Assembly: GCA_027063545.1 (NCBI GenBank)
Contig: JAMORN010000143.1
Span: forward strand, 1 to 6,800
DNA: 6,800 nucleotides
Direction: 5' to 3'
Source: JAMORN01 sp027063545 [NCBI: bacterium]
GTDB taxonomy: Bacteria; JAMORN01
Shown here in pieces: positions 1,677 through 6,800 of the stretch (position 1 is the stretch's first letter; each line of letters starts with the position of its first letter). The position numbers were made by a program, and so were the translations under genes. Under the pieces are notes generated by a model. The model was not told the origin of the DNA. It ran no database searches and saw nothing but the letters and a program-made list of their open reading frames with translations.

Positions 1677-2306
1677 ATGCTTGAACGTTTTAAACCTATA
1701 TATTCTGAGTTTTTAACCCCAATAGCATTAATATTTAAAAAATTAAAAATAAAACCCAATATTATTTCAATATTGGGAGCTTTATTATTAGTAATAGGTT
1801 CAATTTTTATAGTATTTCATAGATATTATACAGCTTTATTTATAATGTTAGTTGGTGGATTATTGGATGGGGTTGATGGTAAAGTCGCAAGAGAAACAAA
1901 GAATGTTACAAAATTTGGAGCATTTTTAGATTCCACAATGGATAGGATAGCTGAGATTTTAATAGGGGTTATTTTATTTGTTTATTTATATAATTTAGAT
2001 ATTAATGAATTACTTAAAGAATTTATTCTATATTTAGCAATATATGATATGGGAGTATTTATGCTTATATCTTATGTAAAAGCTAGAGCAGAGGGATTGG
2101 GAATAGAGTGTAAAGGAGGAATATATCAACGGAGTGAAAGAGGGCTTTTATTAGGTATCTTACTACTATTTAAACAAGTAGGAATAATAGTTTATGTAGT
2201 ATTAAGTGCAATATTAGGTACTTATACTGTATATCAAAGAATAAAAGAGGTATATAATAATTATAAATTTATGATAATTCAAGAAGGAGATGTTAAAGAT
2301 GGTTAG
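1677..2306 (+). CDS. CDP-alcohol phosphatidyltransferase family protein
   Basis: Integral membrane enzyme of 209 residues that transfers a phosphatidyl (or similar diacyl/dialkylglycerol-phosphate) group from a CDP-activated lipid to an alcohol, releasing CMP, in phospholipid head-group synthesis. The family signature DxxDGxxARx8GxxxDxxxD is intact: D64, D67, G68, A71, R72, G81, D85, D89. These are the Mg2+-binding and catalytic acidic residues. KIKPNIISILG (24-34) is the usual sequence before the first membrane helix, and several hydrophobic helices follow (about 30-48, 51-63, 93-108, 115-135, 155-185). The late stretch GIYQRSERG is more like inositol-phosphate-type synthases (PIP or archaetidylinositol-phosphate synthase) than classic PgsA, so the head group could be inositol phosphate or glycerol phosphate; the substrate is not decided. 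It is the first gene of the probable operon and overlaps the next gene by 8 bases. Confidence 0.9.
   Translation: MLERFKPIYSEFLTPIALIFKKLKIKPNIISILGALLLVIGSIFIVFHRYYTALFIMLVGGLLDGVDGKVARETKNVTKFGAFLDSTMDRIAEILIGVILFVYLYNLDINELLKEFILYLAIYDMGVFMLISYVKARAEGLGIECKGGIYQRSERGLLLGILLLFKQVGIIVYVVLSAILGTYTVYQRIKEVYNNYKFMIIQEGDVKDG
2284..2289 (+). promoter_or_regulatory. Ribosome binding site that decides the start of the zinc-ribbon gene
   Basis: AAGGAG lies inside the end of the phosphatidyltransferase gene. It abuts an ATG at 2290 with no spacer, but is 9 bases before a second in-frame ATG at 2299. The second start is therefore preferred, and places M-V-R just before the CxxC pair. Confidence 0.65.
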
Positions 2307-2745
2307 AATTTGTGTTATTTGTGGTAATGAACTTATACATGAGGATGAATATACAAATGTATGTTATAGATGTCAGGATAAATTATTGGAGAATTTTCCT
2401 TTAATAGGGGAGATATTAAATTCTTTATTGTTTGAAGTTATAAATGATTTAACTATGGAGGAAAAGGAAAGAAAGCGTAGAACCTTAGCTTTATATAATG
2501 TAGTTAGAATATTTGGAGAGGAACCAGATATTAATATAGAAAATGCCGATGATTTTTTAGATAATGAGGCTGAGATTGTAAATATATTAAATGATATATT
2601 AAGAGAAAATGAGGAAGCAGATATTGAAGGGAAATTAGGAGCTTGGAGAAGCTATGCTTTGATTAATGCGATAAAAGAGGTAGGAGGAGAGCCATATATT
2701 GAATTTATAGATAGTAAATATCATAAATACTTTAAGTTTGATTAA
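2299..2745 (+). CDS. Small zinc-ribbon protein of unknown function
   Basis: I do not recognise this 148-residue protein. Its N-terminus carries two CxxC pairs, C5-V-I-C8 and C22-Y-R-C25, spaced as in a zinc ribbon or knuckle, so it probably binds one Zn2+. The rest is acidic and mostly helical in character: a hydrophobic helix near 30-50 (ENFPLIGEILNSLL), a charged EEKERKRR stretch (about 53-60), then alternating acidic helices and a C-terminal segment SYALINAIKEVGGEPY. There is no signal peptide or membrane segment, so it is probably cytoplasmic. The gene overlaps the preceding one by 8 bases and is followed 8 bases later by rnhA, so the three should be co-translated. A nucleic-acid or protein-interaction role is possible from the ribbon and the rnhA neighbour, but that is inference only. 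Confidence 0.75.
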   Translation: MVRICVICGNELIHEDEYTNVCYRCQDKLLENFPLIGEILNSLLFEVINDLTMEEKERKRRTLALYNVVRIFGEEPDINIENADDFLDNEAEIVNILNDILRENEEADIEGKLGAWRSYALINAIKEVGGEPYIEFIDSKYHKYFKFD

Positions 2746-3208: not shown

Positions 3209-3898
3209 ATGTTAGTAAAAGAATCCTTAAGAACAAGAGGAATAATTGTTGAGGTTGGTTTTGTACCTCCTTTAGCAAATTTTTCTAAAAAAACTTTAAT
3301 AGCATTTCAAACATCTGTTGAGGAAATTATAGATATTTCTGAAATAAAAAAAGGTGAAGGTTTTATTTTTATGATAAGTAAAGGTGATGGCTTTGATGGA
3401 GAAATTCAGATTAATTTATCAAGGGAGAAATTATTAATGCATATTCTTTTCCCAAGTGGTGCAATTGTTGAACTAATAGAAATTTTTGATAGTATTATAA
3501 AAATATTAAGAGATATAATTAGGCCCCATATTTTTGCTCCTGTTGTTGTAAACATAAGAAAACAGGTTACCACGCAAGAAAAAGATGCAAATTTATTTTT
3601 TACTGAGAGTTTATTTAAATTTAGCAAAGAAAGAGAAGATATATTAGGAAGACCTATTCAAACTATGGGAATAAAATTGATGATGCCGCCTTTTTTAGGT
3701 TCGTCAAGGGAACAAACAGATGCTATAGAATTAAAAATAGAGACATTAAATGAAGACCCAAGAGATATATATTTAGAAATAAATAGAGTATTTAGTGTTC
3801 CAATACCAAGTGCTAACTTTACCACTGTTAAAGATTTTATTTTATCCACAGAAGATTATTTAAATAATAACGTATTAGATTTTATATCATTTAAGTAG
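3209..3898 (+). CDS. Unrecognised 229-residue protein upstream of the sigma-54 activator
   Basis: I do not recognise a family. The start ATG at 3209 has a good AAGGAG (3195-3200) 8 bases upstream, inside the end of rnhA. The protein has no cysteine, no signal peptide and no obvious membrane helix, and looks like a soluble alpha/beta protein. Landmarks: GFVPPLANFSKKTL (17-30), GEIQINLSREKLLMHILFPSG (64-84), a hydrophobic helix IVELIEIFDSIIKILRDI (86-103), a Pro-rich turn KLMMPPFLGS (156-165), and an end segment DIYLEINRVFSVPIPSANF (186-204). The five-base gap to the sigma-54 activator suggests translational coupling, and an accessory or sensory partnership with that activator is conceivable, but nothing in the sequence shows it. 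Codon use looks like that of its neighbours. Confidence 0.8.
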   Translation: MLVKESLRTRGIIVEVGFVPPLANFSKKTLIAFQTSVEEIIDISEIKKGEGFIFMISKGDGFDGEIQINLSREKLLMHILFPSGAIVELIEIFDSIIKILRDIIRPHIFAPVVVNIRKQVTTQEKDANLFFTESLFKFSKEREDILGRPIQTMGIKLMMPPFLGSSREQTDAIELKIETLNEDPRDIYLEINRVFSVPIPSANFTTVKDFILSTEDYLNNNVLDFISFK

Positions 3899-3903
3899 AG
3901 AAA

Positions 3904-5367
3904 ATGAAAGGCCATATTTTAATAATTCAAGAATATAATATTCTAGATAAATCATGGGTAGATGCTTTTAATAAAAATAATTTTAGTTTTGATATTTTTA
4001 ATATATCAGAAGGTTCAACTCATGAGTTAAAGGAACTAAAAGAGCCTGATGTAATTCTTTTAAATATAAACAACTTTTCATCTAAAATAGAAAGTTATAT
4101 TAATTATCTAAAGTTAAACTTTCATGGTATAGAAATAATTGCCATAATTCCAATAGAAAATATAGTAAGGGTTATAGATTTAATACTGAAAAGAGGAATA
4201 TTTTTGTATCTACCTAAACCAGTTGATGTTGAGAATCTTATTTTCGTTATAAAGAAAGCAATTGATGAAAAGAAGAAGACTCAAGAGCTTAAAGAAATGG
4301 AGCTTCAAATTTTCAAAGATACATGGTATACTTCTCCTAAAATGCGAAGGATTTTAAATCTAATATCAAAGTTGGCTATTACAGATGCTACAGTTCTTAT
4401 AACAGGAGAATCAGGTACAGGTAAAGAGGTGACAGCAAAATATATTCATTCATTGAGTCATAGAAGAAACTATCCCTTTGTAGCAGTTAACATAAGTGCA
4501 ATTCCTGAGAATTTAATTGAAAGTGAACTTTTTGGTTATACTAAAGGAGCATTTACTGGGGCAATGAAAGATAAACCGGGTCTTATAGAAGAAGCAAATG
4601 GGGGAACTTTATTTTTAGATGAGATAGGCGATTTACCATTTAATGTACAAGTAAAGTTATTGAGATTTTTACAGGATAAATCTTATAGAAGGGTGGGAGA
4701 CACTAGAGAGAGATATGCAAATGTAAGGATAATAGCAGCAACTAACAGAAACTTACAGGAAGAAATAAAAAAAGGTAATTTTAGAGAAGATTTATTTTTT
4801 AGATTAAATACCTTTCATATAGAGTTGCCTCCATTAAGAGAGAGAAAAGAATGTATAACAAGTTTAGTTAATCAGTTTATTATTAAATATAATTTAATGT
4901 ATAAAAAGAATATTGCTCAAATAGATAAAGAGGCAATGGTGGTATTATTTGAATATGATTATCCGGGAAATATAAGAGAATTGGAACATATAATAGAATA
5001 TGCTGTTGTGATGGATGAAGATGGAGTAATAAAAATAGACGATTTACCGCCTAATATACTAAATTCTAGTAGTAAGAAGGCATTAACTTATTCATCTCTT
5101 AATTCTTTGCCTTATATAAAGGAAAGTGAGGAGAAAGAAAAAGAGGGCTACTTAATAAGAGAAAGTAGTAAAAAAGAAGATAAAAATGATTACAAAATTG
5201 TTAGAAAAGATAAAATGAGATTAAAAACCTTAAAGGAAGTTGAACTAGAATATATAAAAGAAGTATTGGCTGTTTGTAATAATAATCATTCAGAGGCTGC
5301 TAAGATACTAGGGATAAGTAGGGCTACTTTATGGAGAAAATTAAAGGAGTTAGAAGAAAAACAATAA
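3904..5367 (+). CDS. Sigma-54-dependent transcriptional activator with a degenerate receiver domain
   Basis: NtrC-family enhancer-binding protein of 487 residues that uses ATP to open promoters bound by sigma-54 RNA polymerase. Domains: a receiver-like fold at 1-125, AAA+ domain at about 140-380, a charged Lys/Glu/Ser-rich linker (388-437), and a Fis-type helix-turn-helix (about 461-485, SEAAKILGISRATLWRKL). The AAA+ motifs are intact: Walker A GESGTGKE (168-175), GAFTGA sigma-54-contact loop (215-220), Walker B GGTLFLDE (233-240), arginine-finger region FREDLFFRLN (293-302), and YPGNIREL (353-360). The receiver is degenerate. The phosphoacceptor Asp position is Asn (N54 in VILLNINNF), the acidic pair after the first strand reads Q9-E10, but the Lys of the KP motif (K105) remains. 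It is therefore probably not activated by ordinary phosphorylation. fliW and csrA just downstream suggest a flagellar regulator (FleQ/FlrC-like role). No clear Shine-Dalgarno is present; the start is 5 bases after the previous stop. Confidence 0.95.
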   Translation: MKGHILIIQEYNILDKSWVDAFNKNNFSFDIFNISEGSTHELKELKEPDVILLNINNFSSKIESYINYLKLNFHGIEIIAIIPIENIVRVIDLILKRGIFLYLPKPVDVENLIFVIKKAIDEKKKTQELKEMELQIFKDTWYTSPKMRRILNLISKLAITDATVLITGESGTGKEVTAKYIHSLSHRRNYPFVAVNISAIPENLIESELFGYTKGAFTGAMKDKPGLIEEANGGTLFLDEIGDLPFNVQVKLLRFLQDKSYRRVGDTRERYANVRIIAATNRNLQEEIKKGNFREDLFFRLNTFHIELPPLRERKECITSLVNQFIIKYNLMYKKNIAQIDKEAMVVLFEYDYPGNIRELEHIIEYAVVMDEDGVIKIDDLPPNILNSSSKKALTYSSLNSLPYIKESEEKEKEGYLIRESSKKEDKNDYKIVRKDKMRLKTLKEVELEYIKEVLAVCNNNHSEAAKILGISRATLWRKLKELEEKQ

Positions 5368-5388: not shown

Positions 5389-5823
5389 ATGGAAAAAGAA
5401 AAGAATGAAACTAATAAAGAGACAATAATTTATTTTCCTCAGGGAATACCAGGATTTGAAGAGTATAAAAGATATGTAATATATTTATCAGAGGAATTTT
5501 CTCCATTTAAAATTCTGAAGTCAATTGACAATGATGAGCTAAATGTTAAATTTATAATAGTAGAGACTAATTTAATAAAACCTGATTATAAAATAGAATT
5601 GACAGATTTAGATAGAGAAGACTTAAGATATGAAGATGGGGATGTAGTACAAGATTTTTTTATTGTAACAATAGACCCAAAGAATTACAAAAACTCATAT
5701 ATAAACTTAATGGGACCATTGGTTATTAATTTTACTAAAGAATTAGGAAAACAATTAATAATAGACAGATATATTGAACAGCCGTTATATTATTTTTTAA
5801 AGGAAGAGGAGAATTCTAAATAG
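5389..5823 (+). CDS. fliW: Flagellar assembly factor FliW (CsrA antagonist)
   Basis: FliW binds CsrA and blocks its RNA binding; flagellin competes for FliW, so flagellin secretion sets CsrA activity. The 144 residues match the family length. Family signatures are seen: [18 protein letters not shown] (13-30), [10 protein letters not shown] (38-47), KFIIVET (54-60), an acidic middle [13 protein letters not shown] (73-85), VTIDP (93-97), and the closing [18 protein letters not shown] (105-122), the usual NLxAPxxIN...Q region. The first ten residues are a charged extension. The start at 5389 has AAGGGAG (5376-5382) 6 bases upstream. It lies 21 bases after the activator gene and 20 bases before csrA, the conserved fliW-csrA order known from Bacillus and other flagellated bacteria. 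Confidence 0.95.
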
Positions 5824-5826
5824 TAA

Positions 5827-5840
5827 TTTCATGGAGGAAA
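5827..5840 (+). promoter_or_regulatory. Probable CsrA-binding hairpin over the csrA ribosome binding site
   Basis: Just after the fliW stop, TTTC (5827-5830) can pair with GAAA (5837-5840), leaving the hexaloop ATGGAG (5831-5836). Together they read TCATGGAGGA, an exact fit to the known CsrA/RsmE target pattern (A/U)CANGGANG(U/A) with GGA in a hexaloop closed by C-G. The GGAGG is also the Shine-Dalgarno of csrA, 6 bases before its ATG at 5844. CsrA bound here would block ribosome entry on its own gene. The pattern is directly visible; autoregulation is inferred from known CsrA biology. Confidence 0.65.
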
Positions 5841-5843
5841 AAG

Positions 5844-6089
5844 ATGTTAGTATTAACAAGAAAGAAAGGTGAAATAATAAGAATAGGAGATAATATTAAG
5901 ATTATAGTTAGTGATATTCAGGGTAAAAGTGTAAAGATAGCTATAGATGCCCCTAAGGAAATTAGTATATATAGAGAAGAAATTTATCAAAAGATATTAC
6001 AGGAAAATAAAAAAGCCAATGATTCCATAAAGGATTCAAGTATTGATTTAGGAATTTTGAAGAAATTATTTGATGGAAAGAAAAAATGA
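5844..6089 (+). CDS. csrA: Carbon storage/translational regulator CsrA
   Basis: Homodimeric RNA-binding protein that blocks translation by binding GGA-containing hairpins in mRNA leaders, with flagellin mRNA the classic target where FliW is present. The 81 residues hold the full core: [18 protein letters not shown] (1-18) with the RNA-contact residues L4 and R6, [11 protein letters not shown] (30-40), and R44 in IYREEIY, the second key RNA contact. N55 (QENKKA) lies at the position of an Asn reported to be important for FliW binding in Bacillus subtilis CsrA, and a C-terminal tail of about 20 residues ([13 protein letters not shown] and a lysine end) fits the FliW-dependent type. The gene follows fliW by 20 bases, has a strong GGAGG, and overlaps the next gene by ATGA. 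Its product may repress itself through the hairpin at 5827-5840. Confidence 0.97.
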
Positions 6090-6800
6090 AAATTTTTGCT
6101 TCTTTATCACAATTTATAGAAACTCCTTATTATAAAGGAAAATTAGGTAGATGGGTTGCTAATGCGAATTTTTTAGATGCTCTTCTTGATTATTCTGATT
6201 TTGATGAATACCACTTTTATTTCAATAATATAGATTATTATCAATATTTTATAAATTATATAGAAAGTCGTCCTTACTATCATAAAGTAGAGGGAAAAAT
6301 TAGAGGTTTTTATAAGAGTCAACTTATAGAAAATTTAAAAAAGTATGATTATTTTGTTTTTCATCAAACAGGCTGGTATTTAGAAAATCCGAATTTAATT
6401 TATTTAAGAAATACTAAAATAAAAAAGAAATTTGTAATAACAGGAATAACTCATTCTTTAAACGATTTCTCTTCTATTATAGGTATGATTAAATATATTA
6501 CATCACTACCATCAGATATTGATTCTATTATAGCAACCACTTCAACAGCTAAGAAAGTTTTAAATAATTTAGAAAAAGAAGTTAAAACATTTTTATCTAA
6601 TGATTATAATAATATTAAAATAAATATTTCTGTAATTCCTTTAGGTTATGAATATATGTGGGATAAAAAAACTTCTTTATTTTTGAATAAAGAGGAAGCC
6701 AGAGCGCATTTAGGTATAAATAAAGATAGTTTTATTTTGTTATATCTGGGAAGGTTATCTATAGAAACAAAAACAGATCTATTTAATTTTTTATTTAATA
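6086..6800 (+). CDS. GT4-type glycosyltransferase (N-terminal part, runs off right edge)
   Basis: An open frame of 238 codons runs from ATG 6086 to the window edge, so the C-terminus is missing. It fits a GT-B fold, family 4 glycosyltransferase. The N-terminal acceptor domain starts with [10 protein letters not shown], has VFHQTGWYL (91-99) and GITHSLND (120-127), and [12 protein letters not shown] (148-159) is the usual end of that domain. VIPLGYE (183-189) is the linker, then [20 protein letters not shown] (205-224) opens the nucleotide-sugar domain, with the GR and the later K229 as expected donor-site residues. There is no signal peptide; it should be cytoplasmic or peripheral. Its start overlaps the csrA stop (ATGA), with GGAAAG (6075-6080) as a weak ribosome binding site, so it is coupled to csrA. 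Sugar and acceptor are unknown; flagellin glycosylation is a plausible inference from context. Confidence 0.88.

What the first reader, a model, noticed from the sequence alone, without database searches (positions are those of the whole stretch)
5827..5840. Consensus CsrA-binding hairpin masking the csrA Shine-Dalgarno
The sequence shows a 4-bp stem with an ANGGAN hexaloop closed by C-G, reading TCATGGAGGA, an exact match to the known CsrA/RsmE target pattern. It overlaps the csrA ribosome binding site and lies between fliW and csrA. This implies CsrA represses its own translation without affecting fliW on the same mRNA, so the FliW:CsrA ratio would be self-tuned: free CsrA lowers CsrA output only.
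Basis: partly seen in the sequence, partly recalled or inferred. Interest (0 to 1): 0.6.

Follow-up and report, generated by a model that had tools for sequence, protein, structure and literature searches.

The report
Likely CsrA self-control hairpin at csrA
A tiny RNA hairpin at the start of the gene for the regulator CsrA matches the site CsrA binds, and the same hairpin often recurs in front of csrA in very different bacteria, mainly when csrA is not translationally tied to the gene of its antagonist FliW, so CsrA probably limits its own production there.

Summary
The hairpin is there as described: TTTC[ATGGAG]GAAA at 5827-5840, holding the csrA Shine-Dalgarno. Alone it is marginal (about 0 kcal/mol) and absent from longer minimum-energy folds, so relatives must decide. 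In 128 csrA loci sampled across Bacteria the same kind of hairpin lies at the csrA start in 10 of 23 operons with fliW at least 16 nt upstream, 14 of 30 with csrA before fliW, 6 of 34 without fliW nearby, and 0 of 41 where csrA overlaps or closely follows fliW, the layout known to couple the two genes in Bacillus subtilis. Controls: 8 of 164 fliW starts, 11 of 273 other starts. Stem pairs 1-4 covary while the GGA stays; in one phylum the hairpin precedes a separate Shine-Dalgarno. In this genome CANGGANG is at csrA, both flagellin starts and about ten other gene starts, but with a stem of 3 or more pairs only at csrA and one small ORF. Best reading: autogenous CsrA repression, known in E. coli, here as a cross-phylum element that looks like an alternative to fliW-csrA coupling. 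No binding was tested. New variant of a known kind.

The parts
5389..5823 (+). fliW, CsrA antagonist; its own start region has no CsrA-type hairpin (best ANGGAN stem 1 bp)
   Evidence: Pfam PF02623 E=1e-28; start scan
5827..5840 (+). CsrA-type hairpin: 4-bp stem TTTC/GAAA with hexaloop ATGGAG, C-G closing pair
   Evidence: sequence; fold; shuffles; counterparts in other phyla
5831..5836 (+). ANGGAN hexaloop ATGGAG
   Evidence: sequence; consensus ANGGAX on a stem, PMC4005645 passage
5833..5837 (+). csrA Shine-Dalgarno GGAGG, inside loop and closing pair
   Evidence: sequence
5844..6089 (+). csrA, 81 aa; R6, R44, E46 and N55 are present
   Evidence: Pfam PF02599 E=1.2e-23; translation; roles of R6, E46, N55 from a PMC11934962 passage, role of R44 recalled
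5800..5805 (+). possible second, weak GGA site (AAGGAA) in the 3' end of fliW, about 31 nt upstream; speculative partner for the other face of the CsrA dimer
   Evidence: sequence only

Best explanation
The hairpin is an autogenous CsrA operator. When CsrA is free of FliW it binds the ANGGAN loop at the csrA Shine-Dalgarno, keeps the ribosome off, and lowers further CsrA synthesis. FliW-bound CsrA should not bind, so the loop senses CsrA in excess of available FliW. In this genome the site lies after the fliW stop, so fliW translation should be spared. Across bacteria the same element appears in nearly half of the operons where csrA has its own ribosome entry beside fliW, and is missing where csrA is closely coupled behind fliW. 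Shown here: the sequence element, its recurrence, its covariation, and its dependence on gene layout. Inferred: binding, repression, relief by FliW, and the function as a ratio or level control.
For: Exact CANGGANG hairpin at the csrA Shine-Dalgarno. Hairpin (ANGGAN, stem of 3 or more with G-U allowed, -40..+6) in the cross-domain sample of 128 loci: 10/23 spaced, 14/30 csrA-first, 6/34 no fliW nearby, 0/41 coupled; Fisher coupled vs spaced plus csrA-first 8e-8. In 30 genomes of 30 different families, same order: 4/5, 7/10, 0/5, 0/10. Controls: 8/164 fliW starts, 11/273 other starts, or 16/273 if any candidate start counts. Dinucleotide shuffles of the leaders of all 207 loci give means of 0.7 (spaced, observed 22/37) and 0.9 (csrA-first, observed 40/66). 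Stem pairs 1-4 pair above flank shuffles: 0 of 10,000 each on 46 sites of the cross-domain sample; 0, 0, 0 and 7 on all 94 sites; pairs 5-6 do not. In 12 loci by a pattern test, 7 clear, the hairpin precedes a separate Shine-Dalgarno. In the own genome both flagellin starts carry CANGGANG, and of 23 genome-wide CANGGANG-N2-8-ATG sites only csrA and one small ORF have a stem of 3 or more. CsrA is known to repress its own translation in E. coli (PMC7652899 passage).
Against: This copy is among the weakest: bare +0.3 kcal/mol (2 of 72 hairpins are at or above 0; median -2.8), absent from longer folds. More than half of spaced and csrA-first loci in the cross-domain sample have no such hairpin (13/23 and 16/30). 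A terminating fliW ribosome (stop at 5821-5823) would overlap the hairpin, so partial coupling may bypass CsrA. In the coupled class the leader is largely fliW coding sequence, which by itself may exclude the hairpin. CANGGANG before ATG is no more frequent genome-wide than its reversed control (23 vs 26), and by my count 13 of the 23 sites are at plausible starts of ORFs of 80 aa or more, ten of them neither csrA nor flagellin, so the motif without the stem is not specific. Shuffle tests do not remove relatedness. No relative of its own phylum is held. No binding data.
Confidence: 0.72

Rival explanations
1. In this window the motif is only a good Shine-Dalgarno with chance A/T flanks; csrA autoregulation in other phyla does not carry over.
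For: The stem is three U-A pairs plus one C-G in a 22-27% GC genome; marginal energy; stems of 3 or more occur at 7/164 own gene starts, csrA included; CANGGANG occurs at about ten other gene starts.
Against: C-G closing with 4 pairs arises in 0.17% of shuffles; of 23 CANGGANG-N2-8-ATG sites only two have a stem of 3 or more and one is csrA; position and layout match the recurrent element.
Confidence: 0.19
2. The hairpin is a CsrA-independent translation tuner (thermometer-like or Shine-Dalgarno-sequestering structure).
For: In relatives it is often predicted to form (50 of 72 in the MFE fold of -40..+20) and usually holds the Shine-Dalgarno.
Against: The loop matches ANGGAX, the high-affinity CsrA/RsmE loop (PMC4005645 passage), but the test required ANGGAN, so this is partly by construction; GGA in a loop is not a tight Shine-Dalgarno lock; in one phylum it sits upstream of a separate Shine-Dalgarno; it is rare at fliW starts (8/164).
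Confidence: 0.06
3. CsrA binds here mainly to set stability or processing of the fliW-csrA mRNA (discoordinate operon control) rather than to block initiation.
For: CsrA binding between genes of polycistrons with discoordinate control was reported in Campylobacter jejuni (PMC4894983 passage); the site is intergenic here.
Against: The site covers the Shine-Dalgarno, and 69 of 71 hairpins of non-coupled loci start their loop at -9 to -23 of the start codon, which fits initiation block.
Confidence: 0.13

Closest known systems
E. coli csrA leader autoregulation (Yakhnin 2011, as cited in PMC7652899, passage)
   Same: CsrA represses its own translation; one site overlaps the csrA Shine-Dalgarno
   Different: E. 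coli uses four sites and CsrA is antagonised by CsrB/C sRNAs; csrA is not next to fliW. The MG1655 leader does not pass the hairpin test used here (best stem 0), so the test misses a known case. Here there is one consensus hairpin in a FliW-type system.
B. subtilis fliW-csrA module (PMC6529632, passages)
   Same: fliW upstream of csrA; FliW antagonises CsrA; ratio thought critical; the authors also say the system has mechanisms to restrict its own synthesis, without 'autoregulat' in the text
   Different: There fliW overlaps csrA and coupling sets the stoichiometry; the authors predict further systems that restrict abundance. Here a 20-nt gap carries a CsrA-type hairpin.
Flagellin leaders bound by CsrA (hag, Campylobacter flaA, Leptospira flaB3; PMC7652899, PMC4894983, PMC8668096 passages)
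   Same: CsrA acts at the ribosome-binding site; ANGGA loop with compensatory changes among Campylobacter species; GGA hexaloop at flaB3
   Different: Target is flagellin, not csrA

Membership tests
CsrA/RsmE high-affinity RNA site | ANGGAX hexaloop directly on a stem | tested here: met
   TTTC[ATGGAG]GAAA; definition from a PMC4005645 passage
CsrA/RsmE high-affinity RNA site | stem stable enough to present the loop | tested here: inconclusive
   about 0 kcal/mol here; median -2.8 over 72 hairpins
CsrA/RsmE high-affinity RNA site | CsrA binds it in a GGA-dependent way | not testable with these tools
   needs gel shift
Autogenous CsrA control | site at the Shine-Dalgarno of csrA itself | tested here: met
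Autogenous CsrA control | element recurs with compensatory changes beyond the Shine-Dalgarno | tested here: met
   in other phyla only, no relative of its own phylum is held
Autogenous CsrA control | csrA translation falls when free CsrA rises | not testable with these tools
   needs reporter
FliW-CsrA partner-switch module | FliW and CsrA genes linked; CsrA with N55 and C-terminal extension | tested here: met
   residue role from a PMC11934962 passage
FliW-CsrA partner-switch module | flagellin mRNA carries CsrA sites | tested here: inconclusive
   CANGGANG at both flagellin starts, two copies in one leader, but stems of only 2 bp and no binding data

The most novel reading that the evidence does not exclude
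Bacteria with FliW-type control hold CsrA in check in one of two alternative ways: translational coupling of csrA to an upstream fliW, or a conserved autogenous CsrA hairpin where csrA has its own ribosome entry (fliW-gap-csrA or csrA-first). The hairpin is an old cross-phylum regulatory element of csrA that senses CsrA not bound by FliW.
Probability: 0.6. Interest if true: 0.7.

Novelty: new variant of a known kind. Interest (0 to 1): 0.58.

Why it matters
In B. subtilis the FliW:CsrA ratio is set by coupling of overlapping genes, and Oshiro et al. predicted that further systems restrict FliW-CsrA abundance (PMC6529632 passages). A cross-phylum hairpin at csrA, nearly absent when fliW and csrA are coupled, names a candidate and suggests from gene layout which bacteria autoregulate CsrA. 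It is directly testable with leader reporters and gel shifts.

Tried and rejected
Rfam: three sub-threshold matches, none at a csrA leader, in the seven loci given (five csrA loci L001, L003, L005, L006, L013 and two flagellin loci; E up to 5). The genome-contig scan with FliW gave one distant locus and used the only scan. No relative in the same phylum is held, so conservation could be tested only across phyla. A regulon by pattern CANGGANG-N2-8-ATG gave 23 sites against 26 for the reversed pattern, so I claim no regulon from it. The 98-aa ORF on C57 with a strong hairpin looked like FlgM by eye; Pfam gave no FlgM match and the family search gave E=0.97, below cut-off, so I leave it unnamed. 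Alignment A1 held 82 of the 94 distinct sites; I left 12 out without a recorded criterion, so no count rests on it. Sampling bias: I searched the phyla of G054, G063, G008, G048 and G087 because their first csrA locus had the hairpin; the counts over 207 loci are therefore inflated and the cross-domain sample is the fairer one. Not fetched: one of the 31 matching genomes (G016), a partial match (G106), nine genomes, second csrA copies, and matches that one search did not list.

Full report
WHAT IS THERE. The window carries fliW (5389-5823) and csrA (5844-6089) on the + strand, in the only genome held of its phylum (1.57 Mb, 355 contigs, 83% complete). At 5827-5840 lies TTTC[ATGGAG]GAAA, with the Shine-Dalgarno GGAGG inside and the csrA ATG 6 nt after it. 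Among 57 ANGGAN on the + strand and 16 on the - strand of the window it is the only one with a Watson-Crick stem of 4 or more; shuffles of its own 46 nt give 4 pairs with C-G closing in 0.17%. Its predicted stability is near zero and longer folds do not contain it.

OWN GENOME. In 207 kb (40 sampled contigs and the window; contig C291 was added because it holds a flagellin gene, and C151 lay in a range I chose knowing it held the other), 164 gene starts were scored. CANGGANG within -40..+6 occurs at 3: csrA and the two flagellin genes. Stems of 3 or more around ANGGAN (G-U allowed) occur at 7 of 164, of 4 or more at 3 of 164, csrA among both. One flagellin leader has two CANGGANG copies 24 nt apart. 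The motif alone is not exclusive: over the whole genome CANGGANG-N2-8-ATG occurs 23 times (26 for the reversed control). By my count, 13 of these are at plausible starts of ORFs of 80 aa or more: csrA, two flagellins and ten others outside the sampled contigs. With a stem of 3 or more there are two of 23: csrA and a 98-aa ORF on C57.

RELATIVES. CsrA searches over partly overlapping sets of 98, 199, 24, 45, 1, 2 and 386 genomes and fetched stretches gave 218 csrA loci, 207 after dropping 11 identical ones. Test: an ANGGAN loop with 3 or more contiguous pairs in -40..+6. Over all 207: fliW upstream with a gap of 15 nt or less or overlap (coupled), 1 of 61; fliW upstream with a larger gap (spaced), 22 of 37; csrA first, 40 of 66; no fliW within about 1.4 kb, 8 of 42; other, 1 of 1. 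These rates are inflated, because the phyla were chosen for a hairpin in their first genome. In the 128 loci of the cross-domain samples: coupled 0 of 41, spaced 10 of 23, csrA first 14 of 30, no fliW 6 of 34; Fisher coupled against spaced plus csrA first 8e-8. In the 30 genomes fetched (31 matched), each of another family and perhaps another phylum, the counts in the same order are 0/10, 4/5, 7/10 and 0/5; Fisher 0.0005. The one coupled exception (L260) has a G-U pair and G-C closing.

CONTROLS. Same test: 11 of 273 other gene starts with the best Shine-Dalgarno start, 16 of 273 if any candidate start counts, in an earlier set of 105 csrA loci of which 54 passed; 8 of 164 fliW starts. Dinucleotide shuffles of the leaders of four classes (206 of the 207 loci): means 0.7 (spaced), 0.9 (csrA first), 0.6 (coupled), 0.7 (no fliW). 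Covariation, with one site per non-coupled locus chosen by position alone: on the 46 distinct sites of the cross-domain sample, Watson-Crick pairing exceeds flank shuffles at pairs 1-4 (0 of 10,000 each) and not at pairs 5-6; on all 94 distinct sites (99 of 146 loci have a usable ANGGAN) 0, 0, 0 and 7 of 10,000. Pair 3 shows T-A, A-T, G-C and C-G. These shuffles do not remove relatedness. In 12 loci, 7 of them clear and from one phylum, the hairpin stands upstream of a separate Shine-Dalgarno, so the GGA is not kept merely as ribosome site. Loops start at -9 to -23 in 69 of 71 hairpins of non-coupled loci. Bare hairpin energy: median -2.8 kcal/mol over 72; present in the minimum-energy fold of -40..+20 in 50 of 72, not in the window's own.

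MECHANISM. CsrA here has N55, reported as required for FliW antagonism (PMC11934962 passage), and FliW is reported to block CsrA's RNA binding in B. subtilis (PMC7652899 passage). A CsrA site on csrA would therefore read CsrA in excess of available FliW and trim it. In this layout the site follows the fliW stop, so fliW should be spared, although the terminating fliW ribosome reaches the hairpin and may keep some coupling. In csrA-first operons fliW starts within 15 nt of the csrA stop in 48 of 66, so repression would probably lower both proteins there. B. subtilis, where fliW overlaps csrA, sets the ratio by coupling, and its authors predict additional control of abundance (PMC6529632 passages). 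The near-exclusion of hairpin and coupling suggests two alternative solutions. Against this stands the fact that in the coupled layout the leader is largely fliW coding sequence, which could exclude the hairpin without any functional trade-off.

WHAT IS KNOWN. CsrA repression of its own translation is known in E. coli (PMC7652899, PMC3856055 passages). Flagellin leader hairpins with ANGGA loops are known (PMC4894983, PMC8668096 passages). [quoted passage not shown] In the rows shown by my ten searches of the held open-licence library I saw no paper on a csrA-leader hairpin conserved across phyla or tied to fliW-csrA layout; I saw listings and passages only, some lists were cut, and subscription papers are mostly not held. 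The term 'autoregul' or 'autoregulat' has no occurrence in the held main texts of PMC13407953, PMC11934962, PMC7366521, PMC4894983, PMC4682653, PMC6529632 and PMC4066749.

VERDICT. The interpretation as autogenous control is well supported by comparison, weakly by this copy's own stability, and not tested biochemically. The wider pattern is the more interesting result.

Noticed in passing
L286 (contig C57 of the same genome) 4476-4772, - strand: A 98-aa ORF has a strong CsrA-type hairpin ACCTAC[AAGGAG]GTAGGT at its Shine-Dalgarno; it is the only, sub-threshold, FlgM match in the genome (E=0.97).
   Followed up: partly
L103/L282 (flagellin gene, contig C291): Flagellin leader with two CANGGANG sites 24 nt apart, one at the Shine-Dalgarno.
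   Followed up: partly
L106, L109, L110, L112, L116, L117, L120: In one phylum the csrA hairpin stands upstream of a separate Shine-Dalgarno.
   Followed up: yes
L221, L225, L226, L121, L066, L223: csrA leaders that fail the test but look like variants of the hairpin (5-, 7- or 8-nt loops, or GNGGA loops), so the counts may be lower bounds.
   Followed up: no
L263-L285 (own genome), e.g. L265, L267, L268, L276-L280, L285: CANGGANG without a stem at the starts of about nine further ORFs, several looking like secreted or membrane proteins; possible further CsrA targets or chance.
   Followed up: no
window 5831-5872: The AUG inside the hairpin loop opens a 13-codon frame overlapping the csrA start, without its own Shine-Dalgarno; probably incidental.
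   Followed up: no
window 2299-2745, 3209-3898 and 6086-6799: Three ORFs in the fliW-csrA neighbourhood without any Pfam match (E up to 1).
   Followed up: no
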